DNA from: Bacillota bacterium
GTDB lineage: Bacteria; Bacillota_C; Negativicutes; Sporomusales; Sporomusaceae
Direction: 5' to 3'
Length of the DNA stretch: 7,754 nt
Assembly: GCA_023441125.1 (NCBI GenBank)
Contig: JAEZQV010000336.1
Location: 1 to 7,754, forward strand
Below, piece after piece: positions 1 to 7,754 of the stretch. Below the pieces are notes generated by a model that searched no databases, was not told the origin of the DNA, and saw nothing but the letters and a program-made list of their open reading frames with translations. Position numbers and translations under genes: made by a program. The number at the start of each line of letters is the position of its first letter. Position 1 is the first letter of the stretch.

Positions 1-66
1 CTGCAGCAAGGTCAAGAGGCCGGTAAGGACCGGAATAGCCAACGCTAGTAGTATCAGGTGTTGCAT
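1..66 (-). CDS. hyfF: HyfF-like membrane subunit, N-terminal 22 residues (cut by window edge)
   Basis: An open frame starts with ATG at 66..64 and runs off the left edge without a stop. The 22 visible residues begin MQHLILLALAIPVLTG and are almost wholly hydrophobic, as expected for the first membrane helix of a NuoN/MrpD-type antiporter-like subunit. A ribosome binding site AAAGGG (79..74) lies 7 bases before the ATG and overlaps the end of hyfE. The gap to the hyfE stop is only 4 bases. The name rests mainly on position: in hydrogenase-4 operons hyfF follows hyfE. HyfF is known as an ion-translocating membrane subunit. Too little sequence is present to confirm the family, so another membrane protein is possible. 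Confidence 0.6.
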   Translation of the reverse strand, partial: MQHLILLALAIPVLTGLLTLLQ

Positions 67-70
67 GCTA

Positions 71-688
71 TCACCCTTTCAACTTCTTTAAAAGGCCGGT
101 GTCCGTCGTTTCAAAGGACAGCTTCAGCCGGTAAGTCAGAATTACCAGAATAACAACCGCCACCAGGATATCGAAGAATATACCCAGCTCAATAATGAGC
201 GGCAACCCCTGGGTAATGGATAATCCGAGCAAATAGAGACCATTCTCCATGGTAAGCAACCCCAGGGTCTGCATCAGCGCCTGCCGGCGGGTCATGATCA
301 GCAGCAGGCCGATAAAGGACAGGGATACGGCAGCGGGCAGGGTCGAGTTGGCGGCAAATTCCGGCAAAGCATTACCCAGCAGGCCGTGAGCCAGAATAAT
401 GGACAGAATGGCCGTAAAAGTGGTGAAATTAGGCTTTACCAGTTCCCGTTCCTCGGCCAGATAGGGCAACAGCCGGTACAACGCATAGGAGATCAGACCT
501 ACTTTGATGACCGCGGTCAAGAGGGCCGCCACATACATATGAACTTCGCCGGTATGGATGCCGGCAACGGCACAAGCCAGCGCCACAATGACCGATTGGG
601 CCACAATAATGTGAATGCCCAGCCGGAGATTTGACACCCGGGTCAGCAGGATAGCCGCCGACATAAGCAGTATCGTTAACAAAACCAT
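71..688 (-). CDS. hyfE: Hydrogenase-4 component E (HyfE), membrane subunit
   Basis: A 205-residue, very hydrophobic protein with about six or seven predicted membrane helices. HyfE is a NuoK-related subunit of hydrogenase-4 and related membrane complexes and is thought to help form the ion path. The family's conserved C-terminal region is visible: E148 in MENG, then E167 in PLIIELGIFFD. K62 lies in a middle helix (AVIKVG). The length is close to E. coli HyfE (about 216). I chose the ATG at 688 because AAGGGAG (704..698) lies 9 bases upstream and the protein then starts in a membrane helix. The longer frame from 739 would add a polar, unlikely N-terminus and overlap hyfC. It lies 17 bases after hyfC and 4 bases before hyfF, so it is part of the same operon. 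No hyfD lies between C and E. Confidence 0.88.
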   Translation of the reverse strand: MVLLTILLMSAAILLTRVSNLRLGIHIIVAQSVIVALACAVAGIHTGEVHMYVAALLTAVIKVGLISYALYRLLPYLAEERELVKPNFTTFTAILSIILAHGLLGNALPEFAANSTLPAAVSLSFIGLLLIMTRRQALMQTLGLLTMENGLYLLGLSITQGLPLIIELGIFFDILVAVVILVILTYRLKLSFETTDTGLLKKLKG

Positions 689-705: not shown

Positions 706-1611
706 TTACTGGGCCACAATGGCCAGCAAGGACAGACATCCTGCCGCAACCATCAGCCCGGGTACCCGGAACAGCCGCATTTTATTGGTGCTGGTTTCAA
801 TAGCGGCCAGCAGCACCGCTGCGGCCAGCACTTTGACTACGAGCCCCAGCGCTGTCAGCCAGGCTGTTTCCTGACCAAAAACATTCCAGGGAACAAACAG
901 ATTGATCAAGAGCAGGATAAACACCAGTTGCTTGACGGCCGAAGCCCAGAAAATGAGCCCTACCGGCCGGCCGGAATACTCCAGCACCATACCCTCGTGC
1001 ACCATGGTCAGTTCCAGATGGGTGTCGGGGTTATCAACCGGTATCCGGCCTGTTTCCGCTACCGTAATAATCAGGAAAGCAATCGCCGCCAGCACAGCCG
1101 CTAAGGACAGCGGCGCCTGGGCCGCCGCCTGGGCCATAGTGGCAAGCACGGTCGAGCCGGCAGTAAAGGCGACGGTAAAGATAGTAAGCATTAATACCGG
1201 TTCAACCAGCACGCTGATAAACATTTCCCGTGAACCGCCCATGCCGCCGAAAGAACTGCCGGCATCCAGCGAGGCCAGGGCTAAAAAGAAACGGCCCAGC
1301 GCCAACAGGTATACCAGGACGAAGAGATTGTCAAACTGCACGGCCCCCGGCGTGAAAATGGTCGGTACCAGCGCGGCGGCGCCGATGGCGGAGGCAAAAT
1401 AGACATAAGGGGCCAAATGGAAAATCCAGGACACCGTCGGCGATATAACCTGATCTTTTTTGAGAAATTTGGCAAAGTCAAAGTAGGATTGGAAATAACC
1501 CGGGCCACGGCGGCTTTGCAGACGGCCCTTGGTATTTTTAATGATCCCCTGGACGAGCGGGGCCAACAGCACCAGACCAATGACCTGCAGGATTGTAAGT
1601 GTAAGCGTCAT
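706..1611 (-). CDS. hyfC: Hydrogenase-4 component C (HyfC/HycD, NuoH-like), membrane subunit
   Basis: A 301-residue membrane protein with about eight predicted helices, homologous to complex I subunit NuoH, which joins the peripheral redox arm to the membrane arm. Visible family motifs are KGRLQSRRGPG (residues 28-38) followed by the FAKFLKKD loop, GGMGGSREMF with E129 and E137 (about 122-137), and the acidic loop AETGRIPVDNPDTHLELTMVHEG (about 185-207), whose E186, D193, D196, E200, H205 and E206 are typical of the NuoH/HyfC quinone-side or redox-side interface. The ATG at 1611 is chosen because AAGGTGG lies 7 bases upstream. The longer frame begins with TTG at 1632 inside hyfB. The start lies 4 bases after the hyfB stop, which points to translational coupling. 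Length is close to E. coli HyfC (about 315). Confidence 0.92.
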   Translation of the reverse strand: MTLTLTILQVIGLVLLAPLVQGIIKNTKGRLQSRRGPGYFQSYFDFAKFLKKDQVISPTVSWIFHLAPYVYFASAIGAAALVPTIFTPGAVQFDNLFVLVYLLALGRFFLALASLDAGSSFGGMGGSREMFISVLVEPVLMLTIFTVAFTAGSTVLATMAQAAAQAPLSLAAVLAAIAFLIITVAETGRIPVDNPDTHLELTMVHEGMVLEYSGRPVGLIFWASAVKQLVFILLLINLFVPWNVFGQETAWLTALGLVVKVLAAAVLLAAIETSTNKMRLFRVPGLMVAAGCLSLLAIVAQ

Positions 1612-1615
1612 ACTG

Positions 1616-3643
1616 TCACCACCTTGTACCAATAATCATAACCAACACGGTAACTACCATGATATAACCGATATATAGCTGCAGACTGCCGGCCTGAATA
1701 CGCTTAACGCTGTTGGCCAGCCGCAGGATGCCGTCGGTGGCCGGCTGATACAGCCACTCGTTAATGAGGTGGCGGATATGCAGGTTGAGGGACATTTTTA
1801 CCCCGTGATACCGGTTCGGAGCTGTGTCGGCGGTAACTTCCGCAACCGGGCGCAACACGGGTCCGAATACCCGGCGGATTGGCTCGGCAAAGCCGGTGGC
1901 CGTGTACTCCATACGGGCGGTGGGAATAATGCCGCAGGTCCAGGTTTCCCCGGTTCTGACCTGAGGTGCGCCGTTGGCTCTGGCCAGCAGCCAGGCAACT
2001 GCCAGGCCCGCGACCAGCAGAATAACCACGAGCGGCATGGTGATCAGACCGGAGGTGCCCGGCTGAGCCGCAAAGCCGACTGCATACCAGCGGCCGGTTT
2101 GGAACAGGCCGTCCATGGACACGCCGGCATGGCCGGCCACTACCGTCTGGAGAATGCCGATCATCCATTGCGGCCAGACGCCGGCGGCCACGCACACGGC
2201 GGCCAGCGAGCCCATTCCCAGCAGCATGCTGCCCGGTACTTCCCGGGCTATTTCCGCCTGTTTGCTGCGGGGCTTAGCCAGAAATACCACACCGAAAGCT
2301 TTTACAAAACAGGCGGCCGCCAGGGCGCCGGTTAAGCCCAACAAGGCAATCAGAGCAACCGCCGACAACTTGCCGGCTAAACCGGCTGCCGCCTTGGGCA
2401 GAAAGAACAGGGCCTGGAAGGTCAGCCATTCGCTGACAAAACCGTTCAGCGGCGGCAGCGCCGAGATGGCGGCGGCGCCGATTAAAAAGCACAGCGCGGT
2501 ATACGGCATCTTGCTAATGAGGCCGCCCAGATGCTCAATATCCTTGCTGTGGGTGGCATGCAGCACCGCCCCGGCCCCCATGAAGAGCAGCGACTTGAAA
2601 ACCGCATGATTAAAGACATGATACAGCGCGGCAGCCCAGGCCAAACCGGCCAGGGTCTGCTGCCCGTAACTCATAAATACCATACCGGCGCCGACGCCCA
2701 GCAGAATGATGCCGATATTCTCCACACTGTGATAGGCCAACAGGCGTTTAAGATCATGTTCCATGAGGGCGTACAGCACGCCGAGGACCGAGGAAACAAT
2801 GGCCAGTAAGAGTACCAGACCGCCCCACCAGGCCGGACCGGTGCCCAGGAAATCAAGAAAGAAACGGGCCAGGCCATATATAGCGGTTTTAATCATAATC
2901 CCGGACATCATGGCCGAGACGTGGCTGGGAGCGGCGGGATGCGCCTCCGGCAGCCAGATATGCAGCGGCATGACCCCGGCTTTGGTGCCAAACCCCAGCA
3001 AGGCGCACAAAAATACCAGATTGCGCATGGGTTCGGACAAAGCGGCGCCGCTTAACTGAGCAAAATCCAGACTGGCCGAACCGGTTGCCAGCAGCATAAA
3101 GGCAATGGTGATAAACGCTGTGCCCACATGCGTCATTAAAATATACAGATACGCGGCTTTGGTGTTAGCCGTTTTCTCATACTCGTGATTGACCAGAAAG
3201 AAAGATACGACGGTCATTAATTCCCAGACGATAACAAAAGCTACTACCTGGCTCACGGTCAGCACCAGCACCATCGCTAGCAAAAAAGCGTTAAACAGCG
3301 CGACCAGGCTCACATACCGGTGGTGATAATACTCCCGGCTGTACCCCAGCGCATAGACACTGACGGCAGCGCCGACCACGCCAAAAGCCAGCAGGAAATA
3401 CGCCGACAGATAGTCAATTCGGACCTTCAGCAGGCCAAGCGGCGCACCCAGGGAAAACGTCAGCACCTGTCCGCCGCTTACCAGGGTCATGATGGCGCAC
3501 ACTGCCGCCAGCACACAGCCTGCGGCCGCCAGGGTATGGGAAAGATAGTTGGTGGCCCGCGGACTATAGCGGGTGCCAAGTGTCGCAACAATGCCCAGCA
3601 CAAAGGTACCAAGCACAATAAGGTATAATTGATCGATGAGCAC
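1616..3643 (-). CDS. hyfB: Hydrogenase-4 component B (HyfB/HycC, NuoL-like antiporter subunit)
   Basis: A large membrane protein of 675 residues from the preferred start, with roughly 14 to 16 helices. It belongs to the NuoL/NuoM/MrpA family, whose members are proposed to move ions. Visible key residues (numbered from 3643): E141 in VIVWELM, K221 in FGTKAGVMPLHIWLPEAHP, K252 in MIKTAIYG, the LKRLLAYHSVENIG segment (about 298-311), and K350 in NHAVFKSLLFMGAGAV, followed by LPPLNGFVSEWL. The C-terminal part with TCGIIPTARMEYTATGFAEPIRR (interrupted family motif around residues 570-590) and a last helix is typical of HyfB rather than NuoL. Length matches E. coli HyfB (672). The start is GTG. GTG at 3643 has AGGGAG 8 bases upstream, whereas the GTG at 3652 abuts that same site and is less likely. 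Its start is 5 bases beyond the stop of the [FeFe] hydrogenase gene. Confidence 0.92.
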   Translation of the reverse strand: MLIDQLYLIVLGTFVLGIVATLGTRYSPRATNYLSHTLAAAGCVLAAVCAIMTLVSGGQVLTFSLGAPLGLLKVRIDYLSAYFLLAFGVVGAAVSVYALGYSREYYHHRYVSLVALFNAFLLAMVLVLTVSQVVAFVIVWELMTVVSFFLVNHEYEKTANTKAAYLYILMTHVGTAFITIAFMLLATGSASLDFAQLSGAALSEPMRNLVFLCALLGFGTKAGVMPLHIWLPEAHPAAPSHVSAMMSGIMIKTAIYGLARFFLDFLGTGPAWWGGLVLLLAIVSSVLGVLYALMEHDLKRLLAYHSVENIGIILLGVGAGMVFMSYGQQTLAGLAWAAALYHVFNHAVFKSLLFMGAGAVLHATHSKDIEHLGGLISKMPYTALCFLIGAAAISALPPLNGFVSEWLTFQALFFLPKAAAGLAGKLSAVALIALLGLTGALAAACFVKAFGVVFLAKPRSKQAEIAREVPGSMLLGMGSLAAVCVAAGVWPQWMIGILQTVVAGHAGVSMDGLFQTGRWYAVGFAAQPGTSGLITMPLVVILLVAGLAVAWLLARANGAPQVRTGETWTCGIIPTARMEYTATGFAEPIRRVFGPVLRPVAEVTADTAPNRYHGVKMSLNLHIRHLINEWLYQPATDGILRLANSVKRIQAGSLQLYIGYIMVVTVLVMIIGTRW
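1619..1625 (-). promoter_or_regulatory. Ribosome binding site of hyfC (decides start)
   Basis: AAGGTGG, 7 bases upstream of the ATG at 1611, inside the last codons of hyfB. It supports ATG 1611 over the in-frame TTG at 1632. Confidence 0.7.
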
Positions 3644-3648
3644 GAATT

Positions 3649-5064
3649 TCACTCCCTAACCAAATGAAGATAATTTGTACAGTCCAGGCAGCTTTTCTGC
3701 CGGCTGCGGGGGGTGTAGCGGGTATGCAATAACTGGTAGCCATTCTGTTCTTCCAGAAACTCTTCATAAATCCGTTGAATGGCAGGATTGTTATGGGCCT
3801 TACGGTTTTTCTGCCGCTCGTCATGCCGGTAAATGCTGTGGGCCCGCCTGTCATAAGCAAGCTTACGGTCACTGACCGGCCATACCTTAGGCTGACCGCC
3901 GCCGCTGATACAACCGGCCGGGCAGGCCATAACCTCCATGAAGTGAAAATCGGCCTTCCCCTTACGGATTGCTTCCAGAATAGGTACGGCATACTTCAGA
4001 CCGGAAACAACCACAACCTTAAGCTGCCAGGAACCGATTCTGACGTTTGCCCTTCTTACTCCTTCCCCGCCCCGGACAAAGGCAAGCTTAACATCGGGTA
4101 TAGCCTGGCGGGTAACCAGCTCATAACCGGTGCGGAGCGCCGCTTCCATAACGCCGCCGCTGGCGCCGAAAATAGCACCGGCGCCGGAGTAGACACCAAG
4201 CGGTTTATCAAATTTTGCTTTAAGCAGATTCTTGAAATCAATGCCGGCGTCCTTAATTAACTGAGCCAGTTCCCGGGTTGTCAGTACGACATCCACATCC
4301 CGGTAACCGCTGTCCTGCATTTCCGGGCGCTGGCACTCAAACTTTTTACCGGTGCAGGGCATAACGGCCACACTGTAAATGCGGGAAGCTGTCACCTTAT
4401 TGAGAGCGGCGCCATAGGTTTTAAACAGGGCGCCGCCCATTTGCTGGGGTGATTTGCAGGTCGACAGATGGGCAATCAGGTCAGGATACTCCTGCTCGAC
4501 AAACTTGACCCAGGCGGGACAGCAGGAAGTAAACAGCGGCAATACCCCGCCGTCCTCCAGCCGTTCCAGCAGTTCTTCGCTTACTTCCATCGTGTTCAGG
4601 TCGGCGGCGAAGTTACTGTCATAAACCCGTTTAAAACCAAGCTTCTGCAGGGCCGCCGCCAGTTTTCCCGGTGTCAGGCTGCCCAGCGGCATCCCAAACT
4701 CTTCGGCAATGGACACCCTGACCGCGGCCGAGCATTGCACCACCGTAAACAAGTCCTTGTCAGCCAGCGCGGCCTTTACTGCGGGAACATCACTGTCGTA
4801 ATAGGCGGCAAACAGCGGTTCAGTGACTGAGACCGGCAGGTTGCGTTCCTGCCGTTTTTGGGCATACAAATTGATACCGGCGTCAGACCGCGACACATAG
4901 GCCGGGCAGATTTGGATGCACTGCCCGCACATCACACAGCGCTCCGGATTGATTCTGTGCGGCTGTCCTGTCGTGCCCTCAATGGCCTGCACAGGGCAGT
5001 GCAAGGCACAGTGCCTGCAGCCAGTACACAGTTCCGGATCAATTTTAATGATACCTGGCGACAT
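3649..5064 (-). CDS. hydA: [FeFe] hydrogenase catalytic subunit with two N-terminal [4Fe-4S] clusters
   Basis: A complete 471-residue group A-type [FeFe] hydrogenase, which interconverts 2H+ + 2e- and H2. Residues 1-55 hold two [4Fe-4S] motifs (C13, C16, C19, C23 and C43, C46, C49, C53). The H-cluster domain has all three signatures: FTSCCPAW (C181, C182), MPCTGKKFE (M235, C237, K240, E243) and MACPAGCISGGGQP (C381, C385). The four H-cluster ligands C182, C237, C381 and C385 are present, so it should be active. Oddities: the proton-path Glu equivalent to E279 of the Clostridium pasteurianum enzyme CpI is V161, the usual APAVR reads SAAVR (112-116), and a C-terminal tail carries C459 and C462. 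No signal peptide is seen, so it is probably cytoplasmic. GGGAGG (5078..5073) is 8 bases before the ATG. It is a paralogue of the hydrogenase at 6680-7754, and its stop lies just before hyfB, suggesting a partnership with the membrane arm. Confidence 0.93.
   Translation of the reverse strand: MSPGIIKIDPELCTGCRHCALHCPVQAIEGTTGQPHRINPERCVMCGQCIQICPAYVSRSDAGINLYAQKRQERNLPVSVTEPLFAAYYDSDVPAVKAALADKDLFTVVQCSAAVRVSIAEEFGMPLGSLTPGKLAAALQKLGFKRVYDSNFAADLNTMEVSEELLERLEDGGVLPLFTSCCPAWVKFVEQEYPDLIAHLSTCKSPQQMGGALFKTYGAALNKVTASRIYSVAVMPCTGKKFECQRPEMQDSGYRDVDVVLTTRELAQLIKDAGIDFKNLLKAKFDKPLGVYSGAGAIFGASGGVMEAALRTGYELVTRQAIPDVKLAFVRGGEGVRRANVRIGSWQLKVVVVSGLKYAVPILEAIRKGKADFHFMEVMACPAGCISGGGQPKVWPVSDRKLAYDRRAHSIYRHDERQKNRKAHNNPAIQRIYEEFLEEQNGYQLLHTRYTPRSRQKSCLDCTNYLHLVRE
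3652..3657 (-). promoter_or_regulatory. Ribosome binding site of hyfB inside the end of the [FeFe] hydrogenase gene
   Basis: AGGGAG lies within the last two sense codons of the upstream hydrogenase gene. It is 8 bases before the GTG at 3643 and directly abuts the GTG at 3652. The normal spacing favours 3643. Because the site is translated as part of the upstream gene, hyfB translation probably depends on ribosomes finishing that gene. Confidence 0.7.
4408..4473 (-). repeat. Conserved DNA segment shared by the two hydrogenase genes (copy 1)
   Basis: Aligned without gaps to 7397-7462, this 66-base segment differs at 5 positions by my count. It encodes the region around HLS-CKSPQQM-GALFKTYGA in both proteins. 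It shows that the two genes are paralogues in tandem. Much of the identity may be due to selection on the protein. Confidence 0.7.
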
Positions 5065-5202: not shown

Positions 5203-6075
5203 TTACTGCTTCAGCGTGGCCGCCGGAACCGTACTCGCATTGCAGGCAGCTGCCGGGGTGCCGCGCAGGTAACTGTACCAGTAAAGCGTGGCCACAAAAA
5301 CCCCCAGACCAACGATATTCCCCAGTACAGCCGGAACCCAGTTGCCCATAACCATGGTCTCAAGGGTCAGGGTATCCACCTTGGTGCCGAGTTTGCTGGC
5401 TTCCACAACGGCCGGTATTGTTTTGGCAAATAAGCCGGCCGGCAGATAGTACATATTGGCGATGCTATGCTCGTACCCGCTCATGACAAAGGTCATAACC
5501 GGCAAATAGCAGGTAGCCACTTTACTGATAATATCCTTGGAGGAAAAACTCATCCACACGGCCAGACCTACCAGCCAGTTACACAGGATGGCCCGGAAAA
5601 AAACTTCCGCCCAGGTGAGATTGACCTTGGTAACAGCAATGGCTAAAGCCGATGCCCCCAACAGATTGTTATTGAATTTAAACAGGCCTGTCATATACAT
5701 AAGCCAGGCAACAAGTACGGATCCCAGCATATTGCCCAGGAGCACAATCCCCCAGTTTCTTAGAACATCAAACATAGTAATCCGTTTCGAAAACAGCGCC
5801 GTCAGCATCAGAACATTGCCGGTAAACAACTCGGCTCCGCAGATCACCACATACATCAGGCCTACCGAAAAGACCGAGCCGGTAACAAAACGCTGCCAGC
5901 CGGCCCCCAGTGAAGTAAGGTCATGGGTGGCCATGGTCGATCCTTCGGCGCCAAAAGCGATAAAGCAGCCGGCCAGTATCGCTAAGACAAACAAGGGACC
6001 GGCGGACATTTTAGCCCGTTTTACCTGCGCTTCCACACAATTTTGGGCAACCTCGGGCGGTGGGCAAAAACTCAT
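5203..6075 (-). CDS. focA: Formate channel of the FNT family (FocA/FdhC-like)
   Basis: A 290-residue membrane protein of the formate/nitrite transporter family, which forms pentameric channels in the cytoplasmic membrane that pass formate and similar small anions. The first FNT signature is visible as ICGAELFTGN (about 78-87) and the second as AILCNWLVGLAVW (about 162-174). The central pore histidine is H203 in SGYEHSIANM, next to E202, and K150 matches the conserved pore-side lysine. About six membrane helices are expected. The ATG at 6075 has a near-perfect AAGGAGG (6090..6084) 8 bases upstream. Its setting between hydrogenase and ferredoxin genes supports formate rather than nitrite as the substrate. 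The substrate is still an inference, since FNT members overlap in specificity. The N-terminus starts with an unusual SFCPPPEV stretch. Confidence 0.9.
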   Translation of the reverse strand: MSFCPPPEVAQNCVEAQVKRAKMSAGPLFVLAILAGCFIAFGAEGSTMATHDLTSLGAGWQRFVTGSVFSVGLMYVVICGAELFTGNVLMLTALFSKRITMFDVLRNWGIVLLGNMLGSVLVAWLMYMTGLFKFNNNLLGASALAIAVTKVNLTWAEVFFRAILCNWLVGLAVWMSFSSKDIISKVATCYLPVMTFVMSGYEHSIANMYYLPAGLFAKTIPAVVEASKLGTKVDTLTLETMVMGNWVPAVLGNIVGLGVFVATLYWYSYLRGTPAAACNASTVPAATLKQ

Positions 6076-6083
6076 AATAAAGA

Positions 6084-6090
6084 CCTCCTT
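6084..6090 (-). promoter_or_regulatory. Strong ribosome binding site of focA
   Basis: AAGGAGG, a near-consensus site 8 bases before the focA ATG. It is the strongest site in the window and the only one here preceded by a hairpin. Confidence 0.75.
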
Positions 6091-6118
6091 AACAACTTAT
6101 ATTTAGTGCTGATTAAGA

Positions 6119-6144
6119 GCAGGCGGAGCGGCCGCTCCACCTGC
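6119..6144 (-). terminator. GC-rich inverted repeat between the ferredoxin gene and focA
   Basis: Two 13-base arms, GCAGGTGGAGCGG and CCGCTCCGCCTGC on the minus strand, pair throughout with a single G-U wobble. The innermost pairs must open to form a loop. It starts 6 bases beyond the ferredoxin stop codon. On the minus strand it is followed by TCTTAATC, which has too few Ts for a strong intrinsic terminator. It may act as a leaky terminator or as an RNA stability/processing hairpin that sets the level of the distal genes. Confidence 0.5.
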
Positions 6145-6150
6145 ATCCTT

Positions 6151-6675
6151 CTACAGAGCCGGGAAAGGCGAATGCTCCCGCACAGCGCTTTTGCGTTTTT
6201 CCTTAATACCGGCGGTAATAGCCGCCGGCAATACTACCGACAGGGCTTTGGTCGGGCATTTTTTCACGCATTGCGGCCCGTCCGGCACATCGCCGCACAG
6301 ATCGCACTTATAGGCCGTCTTTTGGCCAGGGTTTTCTTCCACTCTGGTTAAATATACCGCCCCGATCGGACAGGCCATCAGGCAATTTTTGCAGCCGACA
6401 CATTTGTCGGCCAGTACATAGATGGCCTGACCGCGCTGGACAATGGCCTTTTCCGGGCAGGCTTCGGCACAGGGCGCGTCTTCGCATTGCCGGCATTGGA
6501 CCGGCACGCTGATGTCCTCAGTTTTTACCACCGACAGCCGGGGCACAAACGGCACACTTTTGATGGCCTCAGTGCCCAGCTGTTTTTCGGTATGCGCCAG
6601 GACACAGGCAATCTCGCAGGTGCGGCAACCGATACACAAATCAGGGTTGCCAATTACGAAGGCCGTCTTGATCAT
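6151..6675 (-). CDS. Four-cluster ferredoxin subunit, HycB/HydN type
   Basis: A 174-residue iron-sulfur protein that should carry electrons between a formate dehydrogenase and a hydrogenase. Sixteen cysteines form four [4Fe-4S] sites: C14, C17, C20, C24; C61, C64, C69, C73; C92, C95, C98, C102; and C124, C127, C136, C140. This order and spacing is that of the HycB/HydN/HyfA group, the electron-carrying subunits of FHL and HDCR. The last 30 or so residues form a basic tail without cysteines. No membrane helix or signal is present, so it is probably a cytoplasmic complex subunit. The ATG at 6675 follows AGAGGGGG (6690..6683) by 7 bases and begins 4 bases after the hydrogenase stop, so the two genes are probably coupled and the proteins partners. 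A stand-alone electron carrier is the other possibility. Confidence 0.88.
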   Translation of the reverse strand: MIKTAFVIGNPDLCIGCRTCEIACVLAHTEKQLGTEAIKSVPFVPRLSVVKTEDISVPVQCRQCEDAPCAEACPEKAIVQRGQAIYVLADKCVGCKNCLMACPIGAVYLTRVEENPGQKTAYKCDLCGDVPDGPQCVKKCPTKALSVVLPAAITAGIKEKRKSAVREHSPFPAL

Positions 6676-6679
6676 TCAA

Positions 6680-7754
6680 CTACCCCCTCTTGGTGTAATG
6701 AGTATGCAGCAGCTCGTGGGATTTGTGGCCCAGCGGCTCACCTAAAAATTCTTTGTAGACTTTGGTAATTTCCGGATTGGTATGGGATTTCCTGAGCGGC
6801 AAGGCCTCATCATGCTTATACATCGAATCCCGGCGGCAGGCATACACGTCCTTGCGCTTGGTCTCTAAAAGCACTTTGGGCTGACCGCCGCCACTGATGC
6901 AGCCCTGCGGGCAGGCCATAACCTCAACAAAGTGGAAATCGGCCGTGCCGTTTTTAATTTCCTCAATAATCGGCGCGGCATTGGCCAGCCCGGCGACAAC
7001 CACGGTCTTGACGGCCAGATCACCCACCTGGATGGTAGCCCGTTTTATTCCCTGGCTGTAGCGCACGTCCAGAATGTTGACGTTTTTAAGGGCTTTGCCG
7101 GTTATCAGTTCATAGCCGGTACGCAGCGCGGCTTCCATTACACCGCCGGTGACTCCGAAGATATGCCCGGCGCCGGTGTACGCTCCTAGTACGGAATCCG
7201 GCCGGCCAGGTTCCAGACTCTTAAAATCGATGCCGGCGTGTTTGATTACATTGGCCAGTTCCCGGGTTGTCAGCACCAGGTCAACGTCCTGGCTGCCGCT
7301 TGACTTCATTTCCGGGCGGGCGGCCTCAAATTTTTTGGCGGTACAGGGCATGACCGACACGCTGACAATTTTCTTGGGGTCGATTTTATCAAGCTGGGCG
7401 CCATAGGTCTTAAACAGGGCGCCGGCCATTTGCTGGGGCGACTTGCAGCTCGACAGATGGGCCTGAATGTCGAACTGTTCCTGCTCCACATAGTTAACCC
7501 AGGCCGGACAGCAGGAGGTGAACATGGGCAGTATGCCATTGTCCTTAATCCGTTTAATCAGCTCGCTGCCTTCCTCCATAATGGTCAGGTCGGCGGTAAA
7601 GTTAGTGTCATATACCCGGTCAAAACCCAGTTTTCTAAGAGCGGTAACCATCTTGCCGTCAACCAGTTCGCCTGATTCCAGGCCAAAGTCTTCAGCCAGG
7701 CCAACCCGGACAGCGGGGGCGCATTGCACCATGGTAAAGGTATCCGGATTACTG
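6680..7754 (-). CDS. hydA: [FeFe] hydrogenase, C-terminal part (N-terminus beyond window edge)
   Basis: An open frame enters from the right edge and ends with TAG at 6682..6680. About 358 residues are visible. They contain the whole H-cluster domain: FTSCCPAW near 7513, MPCTAKKFE near 7350, and MACPQGCISGGGQP near 6900. All four H-cluster cysteines are present. The proton-path residues matching CpI E279 (in MEEGSE), E282 and S319 are kept, unlike in the second hydrogenase. The protein ends in the usual HTHYTKRG. The start is outside the window: the ATG at 7732 is internal, because the frame upstream (PDTFT) still matches the family. Any N-terminal iron-sulfur clusters are therefore unseen. 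The immediately following HycB-type ferredoxin resembles the HydA2-HycB arrangement of HDCR complexes in acetogens. Confidence 0.92.
   Translation of the reverse strand, partial: SNPDTFTMVQCAPAVRVGLAEDFGLESGELVDGKMVTALRKLGFDRVYDTNFTADLTIMEEGSELIKRIKDNGILPMFTSCCPAWVNYVEQEQFDIQAHLSSCKSPQQMAGALFKTYGAQLDKIDPKKIVSVSVMPCTAKKFEAARPEMKSSGSQDVDLVLTTRELANVIKHAGIDFKSLEPGRPDSVLGAYTGAGHIFGVTGGVMEAALRTGYELITGKALKNVNILDVRYSQGIKRATIQVGDLAVKTVVVAGLANAAPIIEEIKNGTADFHFVEVMACPQGCISGGGQPKVLLETKRKDVYACRRDSMYKHDEALPLRKSHTNPEITKVYKEFLGEPLGHKSHELLHTHYTKRG
7397..7462 (-). repeat. Conserved DNA segment shared by the two hydrogenase genes (copy 2)
   Basis: Partner of 4408-4473, in the same orientation and about 3.0 kb away. 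61 of 66 bases match by my count. Confidence 0.7.

What the first reader, a model, noticed from the sequence alone, without database searches (positions are those of the whole stretch)
1616..5064. [FeFe] hydrogenase gene directly joined to a complex I-like Hyf membrane arm
Seen: a complete [FeFe] hydrogenase gene ends within a few bases of the hyfB start, and the hyfB ribosome binding site lies inside the hydrogenase gene. hyfC, hyfE and hyfF follow at once. Known: Hyf/Hyc membrane arms normally serve [NiFe] group 4 hydrogenases (HyfG/HyfI), and standard [FeFe] hydrogenases are soluble. Inference: the [FeFe] enzyme may be the catalytic or a second electron-accepting part of an ion-pumping membrane complex, possibly a formate hydrogenlyase with an [FeFe] active site. 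Alternatively, the membrane arm may belong to an Ehr-type complex that has lost its Ni ligands.
Basis: partly seen in the sequence, partly recalled or inferred. Interest (0 to 1): 0.75.

Follow-up and report, generated by a model that had tools for sequence, protein, structure and literature searches.

The report
Iron hydrogenase on a disarmed pump
In this bacterium the gene of an iron-only hydrogenase is joined directly to the genes of a complex I-like membrane pump; the pump's own nickel-iron hydrogen site, which lies outside the stretch read, has likely been dismantled, so the iron enzyme would take over the hydrogen chemistry of a predicted energy-saving membrane complex.

Summary
On the minus strand lie hydA1 (cut), hycB, focA, hydA2, hyfB, hyfC, hyfE and the start of hyfF; hydA2 ends within a few bases of hyfB and keeps its [FeFe] motifs. 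Its closest solved relative is HydA2 of the hydrogen-dependent CO2 reductase (HDCR). The neighbourhood recurs in Sporomusa sp. KB1, S. termitida, Anaerospora hongkongensis and a Solidesulfovibrio MAG, each time with focA. Their HyfG belongs to one clade (27 of the 120 closest HyfG proteins listed) in which two of the four Ni-Fe cysteines are serine and an Arg and two Ser are replaced; the other 93 keep all four cysteines. Among loci fetched, HydA precedes hyfB in 4 of 12 clade loci, 0 of 40 intact and 0 of 12 other Ehr. Best reading: an Ehr-type arm without a [NiFe] site carries an HDCR-type [FeFe] module and likely passes electrons from H2/formate to a quinone while pumping; assembly and acceptor are untested. 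Against: KB1's HydA lost the first Cys of TSCCP, complex I quinone residues are absent, and Desulfosporosinus holds the same arm without HydA.

The parts
6680..7754 (-). hydA1, [FeFe] hydrogenase of HDCR type, 5' end outside the window
   Evidence: Pfam Fe_hyd_lg_C 5.7e-96; 85-87% identical to HydA in FdhH-HycB-HydA-HycB clusters of six genomes of the order of KB1, L188-L193
6151..6675 (-). hycB-like 4Fe-4S ferredoxin subunit
   Evidence: Pfam Fer4_11 and others; AegA/HydN-type models, below cut-off; 82-87% identical to the HycB next to HydA in L188-L193
5203..6075 (-). focA, formate/nitrite transporter family
   Evidence: PF01226 2.2e-77; TIGR00790 234.6 above cut-off 232.3, TIGR04060 FocA 224.1 below cut-off 290.1; a focA precedes HydA-Hyf in all five such loci
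3649..5064 (-). hydA2, [FeFe] hydrogenase joined to hyfB; two N-terminal 4Fe-4S sites, motifs TSCCPAW, MPCTGKKFE, EVMACPAGCISGGGQP
   Evidence: TIGR02512 above cut-off; best solved relative HDCR HydA2 7qv7_D E 1.1e-183; motifs
3641..3657 (-). junction: AGGGAG inside hydA2, hydA2 stop 3651-3649, GTG starts at 3652 and 3643
   Evidence: sequence
1616..3652 (-). hyfB, antiporter-like membrane subunit
   Evidence: PF00361 2e-54; NF005086 above cut-off
706..1611 (-). hyfC, NuoH-like membrane subunit
   Evidence: PF00146 1.8e-43
71..688 (-). hyfE, small membrane subunit
   Evidence: NF008556 hydrogenase 4 membrane subunit 1.6e-17, below its cut-off; 62-86% identical to HyfE of the 12 SxSC loci with a hyfE match
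1..66 (-). start of hyfF (22 codons in the window)
   Evidence: translation, resembling the start of HyfF in L001 and L002

Best explanation
An HDCR-type [FeFe] hydrogenase gene is joined directly to the genes of a Hyf membrane arm whose large subunit has likely lost its [NiFe] site, and the products are predicted to form one membrane complex in which the [FeFe] enzyme, with HycB and formate dehydrogenase, would feed electrons from H2 or formate through the Fe-S clusters of HyfI into the emptied HyfG pocket, likely to a quinone, and so would drive proton pumping by HyfB/HyfF. Shown: the gene order; the recurrence in four other organisms; the coordinated replacement of [NiFe]-site residues in the HyfG clade; intact H-cluster motifs in the window's HydA2; purifying selection on HyfG and the arm. 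Inferred: that P0008 is the window's own HyfG; that HydA docks on the arm; the direction of electron flow; the quinone as acceptor; pumping. The architecture (HydA plus disarmed arm as one functional unit) I hold at about 0.7; the whole mechanism with quinone at the figure given below.
For: HyfG: C210S and C500S in 27 of 27 clade members against C in 93 of 93 others among the 120 listed, with R447Q, S469A and S471A equally fixed. The clade is one side of a branch (SH-aLRT 100, quick tree of 67 rows) among intact HyfG of the KB1 order and apart from the 12 other Ehr rows. The other subunits show at most one well-sampled fixed difference each between 12 clade loci and 21 intact loci, so change is concentrated in the [NiFe] pocket. 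HyfG differences L001/L079 by codon position are 91, 38, 256, and HyfB and HyfC show the same bias. HydA precedes hyfB in 4 of 12 clade loci, 0 of 40 intact, 0 of 12 other Ehr, among loci fetched with 1.5 kb or more before hyfB. focA in all five HydA-Hyf loci; HycB and an FdhH with an in-frame TGA in L002, HycB and FdhH in L007. A sigma-54-like site with one mismatch lies about 90-190 bases before focA in L001, L002, L007 and L079 (each scan expects about 1.1-1.3 such matches by chance somewhere in its locus), and a sigma-54 response regulator gene lies upstream of focA in L001. Sporomusa species, S. termitida included, are listed with ubiquinone and cytochromes b/c (PMC12003927, PMC8578096; passages). 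Loss of the [NiFe] site opening the pocket to other acceptors is the published picture for MBS and complex I (PMC7684303; passages).
Against: HydA of Sporomusa sp. KB1 reads TSFCPAW in place of TSCCPAW and is altered in a further loop; S. termitida has TPC for MPC. Eight clade loci (seven of the Desulfosporosinus group, one Desulforamulus) have no HydA beside hyfB, and in the five of those genomes searched (two are MAGs) no HDCR-type HydA was found. The complex I quinone-headgroup residues H38 and Y87 align, read by eye, with Ile158 and Gly207 of KB1 HyfG, while the MBH glutamate E21 is kept. The proximal-cluster CxxC of HyfI is hydrogenase-like, not the CC of complex I. The HydA joined to Hyf do not form one clade in the trees, although one clade is not rejected (AU p 0.10). 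Quinones of Anaerospora and Solidesulfovibrio were not looked up. No co-purification, activity or metal data exist here.
Confidence: 0.42

Rival explanations
1. Membrane-anchored HDCR or formate hydrogenlyase: HydA, HycB and FdhH interconvert H2 + CO2 and formate, and the disarmed arm only tethers them to the membrane next to FocA, without electron flow through HyfG.
For: focA, hycB, FdhH and hydA in one cluster in L002 and L007; L169 has focA-hycB-hyf-hycB-FdhH with an intact HyfG and no HydA, the same plan minus HydA.
Against: The Fe-S ligands of HyfI and the membrane subunits are conserved, and the arm exists without HydA in Desulfosporosinus, so it likely has a job of its own.
Confidence: 0.2
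2. The disarmed arm is a ferredoxin- or otherwise driven Ehr pump, and hydA2 is only co-transcribed; HydA is a separate soluble enzyme of the same formate regulon.
For: Desulfosporosinus and Desulforamulus arms without HydA; KB1 HydA looks altered; a separate HDCR cluster exists in S. termitida.
Against: HydA directly before hyfB, or separated only by hycB, in all five HydA loci, with gene overlap in the window; not found beside any of the 40 intact arms examined.
Confidence: 0.26
3. HyfG is not dead: the two remaining cysteines still hold a modified metal site that makes or uses H2.
For: Both remaining cysteines are kept in 25 of 27 clade members; the glutamate equivalent to MBH E21 is kept in all 8 rows of A1.
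Against: Two of 27 have also lost the second L1 cysteine (SASC); the Arg and two Ser positions are replaced in all 27.
Confidence: 0.07
4. Ordinary FHL plus a nearby hydrogenase: the window strain has an intact HyfG in this cluster, off the window.
For: The window ends in hyfF, so its HyfG is not read; KB1 and G022 hold an intact second Hyf elsewhere.
Against: P0008 (SCSC) is listed with the same longest contig length, 40,431, as P0122, the window's HydA2; the four other HydA-Hyf loci are SCSC or SASC.
Confidence: 0.04

Closest known systems
Hydrogen-dependent CO2 reductase (HDCR) of Thermoanaerobacter kivui and Acetobacterium woodii
   Same: HDCR HydA2 is the closest solved relative (7qv7_D, 1.1e-183); HycB-like subunits, and FdhH in relatives
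   Different: HDCR is described as lacking membrane subunits (PMC6288185, passages); here hydA2 is joined to a Hyf arm
Formate hydrogenlyase / Hyf (group 4 [NiFe] hydrogenase; HycE 7z0s)
   Same: hyfB, C, E, F in the window, hyfG and hyfI in relatives; focA, hycB, FdhH in relatives; HyfG of KB1 is closest to HycE among solved structures (2.9e-94)
   Different: two Ni-Fe cysteines and surrounding residues replaced; an [FeFe] hydrogenase gene is present instead
Ehr complexes, including the proposed FDH-Ehr
   Same: group 4-like arm with antiporter-like subunits that lacks Ni-Fe ligands (definition in PMC6349859, passages)
   Different: this clade is placed apart from the other Ehr rows sampled and carries an [FeFe] hydrogenase; the paper's FDH-Ehr has a formate dehydrogenase with NuoE/F-like partners
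MBS sulfane reductase of Pyrococcus furiosus
   Same: two of four [NiFe] cysteines kept, arm retained (PMC7684303, passages)
   Different: MBS lacks one proximal-cluster ligand and the E21 glutamate; here HyfI keeps CxxC and HyfG keeps the glutamate
Cytochrome b-linked periplasmic [FeFe] hydrogenase of Sporomusa ovata (HydA2B2C2)
   Same: [FeFe] hydrogenase tied to the membrane (PMC9430772, passages)
   Different: that one is described as potentially periplasmic with a cytochrome b anchor; this one lies beside a complex I-like arm, and no cytochrome gene is in the window

Membership tests
[FeFe] hydrogenase group A | model score and three H-cluster motifs | tested here: met
   420.6 bits against cut-off 405.95; TSCCPAW, MPCTGKKFE, EVMACPAGCISGGGQP
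HDCR | HydA of HDCR type | tested here: met
   7qv7_D E 1.1e-183, next solved sequence 6.7e-106
HDCR | FdhF and HycB in the same cluster | tested here: inconclusive
   hycB in the window, FdhH not in the 7.7 kb; FdhH present in L002, L007 and L080, not found in L001 or L079
HDCR | no membrane subunits | tested here: not met
   hydA2 joined to hyfB, hyfC, hyfE
group 4 [NiFe] hydrogenase / FHL | two CxxC Ni-Fe ligand pairs in HyfG | tested here: not met
Ehr | group 4-like arm with antiporter-like subunits and missing Ni-Fe ligands | tested here: met
   HyfB of the window, HyfF of L001, SxSC HyfG; for the window's HyfG through P0008
complex I | quinone headgroup residues H38 and Y87 of Nqo4 | tested here: not met
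   aligned, by eye, with Ile158 and Gly207 of KB1 HyfG (roles from PMC7684303)
MBS | proximal cluster with only three cysteines | tested here: not met
   HyfI keeps CxxC plus two further cysteines in L001, L002 and L003
energy-converting complex | ion pumping coupled to redox | not testable with these tools
   needs membrane vesicles

The most novel reading that the evidence does not exclude
A new kind of energy-converting hydrogenase: a complex I-like pump that threw away its own [NiFe] site and took on an [FeFe] hydrogenase/formate dehydrogenase module as its electron input, making a proton-pumping H2/formate:quinone oxidoreductase, and so a present-day replay of the step from hydrogenase to complex I.
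Probability: 0.33. Interest if true: 0.85.

Novelty: new variant of a known kind. Interest (0 to 1): 0.62.

Why it matters
Energy-converting hydrogenases are taken to rest on [NiFe] sites, and complex I is thought to descend from them by loss of that site (PMC7684303, passages). Here the loss looks young: intact and disarmed copies stand in the same genomes (KB1, G022), the membrane arm is almost unchanged, and an [FeFe] module sits beside it. If the complex is real, it gives some acetogens and sulfate reducers a further coupling site and makes the hydrogenase-to-complex I step testable in living organisms. My ten paper searches (three of them returned nothing) listed no paper whose title or abstract start describes it, and it did not appear in the passages I read.

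Tried and rejected
Whole genome of the window: none held, so its HyfG could not be read directly; P0008 is used through equal contig length. Structure models were too weak at the sites of interest (HyfG P0008 mean pLDDT 71.2, residues 140-185 and 473-506 below 50; HydA2 62.7), so no pocket geometry was drawn from them and no fold search was run. One origin of the Hyf-joined HydA: not seen in the trees, not rejected; left open. A sigma-54 site inside the window: 6 matches at two mismatches against 5.99 expected, so nothing there; the sites before focA are in relatives only; one before hyfB in L006 has one mismatch, in a two-mismatch scan with 18 matches against 22.2 expected, and none with the stricter first pattern. 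MBS-like sulfur reduction: set aside because HyfI keeps four proximal-cluster cysteines. Association test: Fisher p 0.0018 for 4 of 12 against 0 of 40, but loci are related by descent, so it is only a guide.

What the counts leave out. Gene contexts were fetched for part of the HyfG matches: 28 of 32 places, 35 of 56, 3 of 5, none of the nine, and not the four further intact places. From the fetched loci the HydA count drops those with under 1.5 kb before hyfB, no hyfB, or no readable HyfG: L087, L103, L104, L156, L157, L160, L170 (intact or unread), L080 and L145 (SxSC), L012, L013, L014 and L018 (other Ehr), and L105 and L106 (HDCR clusters without Hyf). The window is not in the 4 of 12; with it the count is 5 of 13. 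The HyfG list of 120 is the best of 4144 proteins over threshold, the HydA list the best 120 of 4395. The HyfG tree is a quick one and the four ligand columns were left in.
Full report
What is in the window. All genes run on the minus strand. From upstream to downstream they are hydA1 (6680-7754, 5' end cut), a hycB-like ferredoxin gene (6151-6675), focA (5203-6075), hydA2 (3649-5064), hyfB (1616-3652), hyfC (706-1611), hyfE (71-688) and the first 22 codons of hyfF. HydA2 scores 420.6 bits on the [FeFe] group A model (cut-off 405.95) and HyfB 695.8 on hydrogenase 4 subunit B (cut-off 667). The hydA2 stop overlaps a GTG start of hyfB by GTGA; a second in-frame GTG five bases beyond the stop has AGGGAG eight bases ahead, inside hydA2.

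What kind of hydrogenase. The best solved relative of HydA2 is HydA2 of the T. kivui HDCR (7qv7_D, E 1.1e-183; the next, a periplasmic [Fe] hydrogenase, 6.7e-106; the species is recalled). The three H-cluster motifs are canonical (their canonical form is recalled). HydA1 and the HycB are 85-87% and 82-87% identical to those of FdhH-HycB-HydA-HycB clusters in six genomes of the order of Sporomusa KB1 (L188-L193). The window therefore seems to carry the end of an HDCR operon followed at once by focA-hydA2-hyf.

Where else it occurs. A scan of genome contigs with HyfB gave 19 loci. HydA lies before hyfB in Sporomusa sp. KB1 (L001), Anaerospora hongkongensis (L002) and a Solidesulfovibrio MAG (L007). 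In L002 and L007 a hycB stands between hydA and hyfB, and FdhD, HycB and FdhH genes follow hyfI; the L002 FdhH has an in-frame TGA in a context typical of selenocysteine (the context is recalled). focA precedes HydA-Hyf in all five loci, the window included; elsewhere among 80 loci it was found only in L169.

The large subunit. HyfG of L001 aligns best, among solved structures, to HycE of FHL (7z0s, 2.9e-94). Where HycE has CGIC and CYSC, KB1 has SGVC and SYAC. Of the 120 closest HyfG proteins listed (of 4144 over threshold), 25 read SCSC and 2 SASC at the four ligand positions, all at 68% identity or more to KB1; 93 read CCCC, all at 66% or less. Eight positions differ consistently between the two sets; besides the two cysteines they include R447Q, S469A and S471A, each 27 of 27 against 93 of 93. 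From memory, the Arg is the pendant arginine over the [NiFe] site, one of the Ser the cyanide-binding serine, and the lost cysteines the terminal Ni ligands. P0008 (SCSC) and P0122 (identical to the window's HydA2) are both listed with a longest contig of 40,431 bases, so P0008 is very probably the window's HyfG. Longest contig lengths are also shared by the SxSC HyfG/HydA pairs P0007/P0131, P0011/P0138, P0019/P0141, P0026/P0237 and P0002/P0240 (KB1); two intact HyfG share one too, P0066/P0154 and P0078/P0174, but on contigs of 4-5 million bases (in the first, S. carbonis by name, the genes lie about 88 kb apart: G026).

History. In a quick tree of 67 HyfG rows (29 CCCC, 26 SxSC, 12 other Ehr) the SxSC set is one side of a branch (SH-aLRT 100) among intact sequences of the KB1 order, and the other Ehr lie apart, so the site was likely lost separately here. 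KB1 and G022 hold an intact and a disarmed Hyf in one genome. Between 12 SxSC and 21 intact loci the other subunits show at most one well-sampled fixed difference each (HyfC F286L, HyfB R618V, HyfF G374A, HyfI L187S, HyfE none; two more HyfI positions rest on one to four rows). HyfG differs between L001 and L079 at 91, 38 and 256 first, second and third codon positions, so it is under selection.

Association with HydA. Among loci fetched with at least 1.5 kb before hyfB, HydA is there in 4 of 12 SxSC loci, 0 of 40 CCCC loci and 0 of 12 other Ehr loci; contexts were fetched for part of the matches only (see Tried and rejected). The eight SxSC loci without it are seven of the Desulfosporosinus group and Desulforamulus aquiferis, whose genes are broken in the record. 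Five of these genomes (G003-G006, G009; two are MAGs) were searched for HydA; their best matches are 46-53% identical, against 61-65% for the HDCR-type HydA of G001, G002, G007 and G008 in the same call. G008, a Pelosinus MAG, has an HDCR cluster and, elsewhere, an intact Hyf. In the order of G007 (348 genomes) five genomes matched: G007 reads SASC, the other four CCCC; one of those, L169, is an FHL-like cluster with focA, hycB and FdhH and no HydA. Among 380 genomes of the class of KB1, nine matched at 1e-255: four SxSC and five CCCC. Among 398 drawn from the phylum of G003 one matched at that threshold, G003 itself. In the order of Desulforamulus 8 of 113 genomes matched at 1e-150, all CCCC; G009 itself, with its broken genes, did not reach it.

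Results against my reading. KB1's HydA has TSFCPAW in place of TSCCPAW and an altered loop (SGDGTIFSAAEDVMEVSL); P0191, its nearest relative in the tree, is altered in the same loop; S. termitida has TPC in place of MPC. KB1 has no other HDCR-type HydA. In that lineage HydA may be an electron-transfer or structural remnant. FdhH was not found in L001 or L079. The complex I quinone residues are absent, and the MBH glutamate and a hydrogenase-like proximal cluster are kept (roles from PMC7684303, passages). HydA sequences beside Hyf do not group together in the trees, though one clade is not rejected (AU p 0.10). Structure models were poor.

How it would work. In this superfamily coupling is thought to need redox chemistry at the pocket between HyfG, HyfI and HyfC. 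With the [NiFe] site gone, electrons from HydA (H2) or FdhH (formate), carried by HycB and the clusters of HyfI, need another acceptor there. Sporomusa species are listed with ubiquinone and b/c cytochromes (PMC12003927, PMC8578096; passages), so a quinone is the likeliest acceptor; that step is inference. A sigma-54 response regulator and a PAS histidine kinase are encoded beside the KB1 cluster and beside a Desulfosporosinus arm without HydA (L006), and sigma-54-like sites lie before focA in four relatives (about 1.1-1.3 matches expected per locus by chance), as in the formate regulon of E. coli (recalled).

What is known. HDCR is described as soluble and without membrane subunits (PMC6288185, passages); a putative HDCR of S. 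sphaeroides KIAC has been expressed in E. limosum (PMC12456013, passages). Ehr complexes lacking Ni-Fe ligands and a possible FDH-Ehr are proposed (PMC6349859, passages). A survey of Sporomusa genomes marks S. termitida as without Ech (PMC12003927, passages). My ten searches of the library listed no paper that by title or abstract start describes an [FeFe] hydrogenase joined to a disarmed Hyf arm; the library lacks most subscription journals.

Noticed in passing
window 5203-7754: A second HDCR-type hydA with hycB lies just upstream of focA, so two different HDCR-type hydrogenases share one gene run; in G022 (L080) HDCR-type genes follow the Hyf arm instead.
   Followed up: partly
L001 8548-9933: HydA of Sporomusa sp. 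KB1 has TSFCPAW in place of TSCCPAW and an altered loop; the ORF is intact. It may be a hydrogenase turned electron-transfer subunit.
   Followed up: partly
L003-L006, L142-L144: Desulfosporosinus-group genomes hold the disarmed Hyf arm without HydA beside it; in the four searched (G003-G006) no HDCR-type HydA was found. Its electron donor is unknown.
   Followed up: partly
L163-L168: A separate Ehr group in the order of G003 reads SESG at the ligand positions, with no HydA, FocA, HycB or FdhH match in the loci fetched.
   Followed up: no
L001 7522, L002 6365, L007 5494, L079 15513 (minus strand): Sigma-54-like sites TGGCATG... about 90-190 bases before focA; a sigma-54 response regulator and a PAS histidine kinase are encoded next to the L001 cluster and next to the L006 arm.
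   Followed up: partly
L002 19239-19241: In-frame TGA in FdhH, in a context typical of selenocysteine (recalled).
   Followed up: no
L016: The hyfB, hyfC, hyfF and hyfG genes of Desulforamulus aquiferis are broken into several frames, either by decay or by sequence errors.
   Followed up: no
window 3649-3690: HydA2 has a C-terminal tail KSCLDCTNYLHLVRE; P0126 and P0131 have shorter tails with one cysteine. The window, KB1, S. termitida and P0131 HydA also lack three residues of the C-terminal GEPLGHES loop of HDCR HydA.
   Followed up: no
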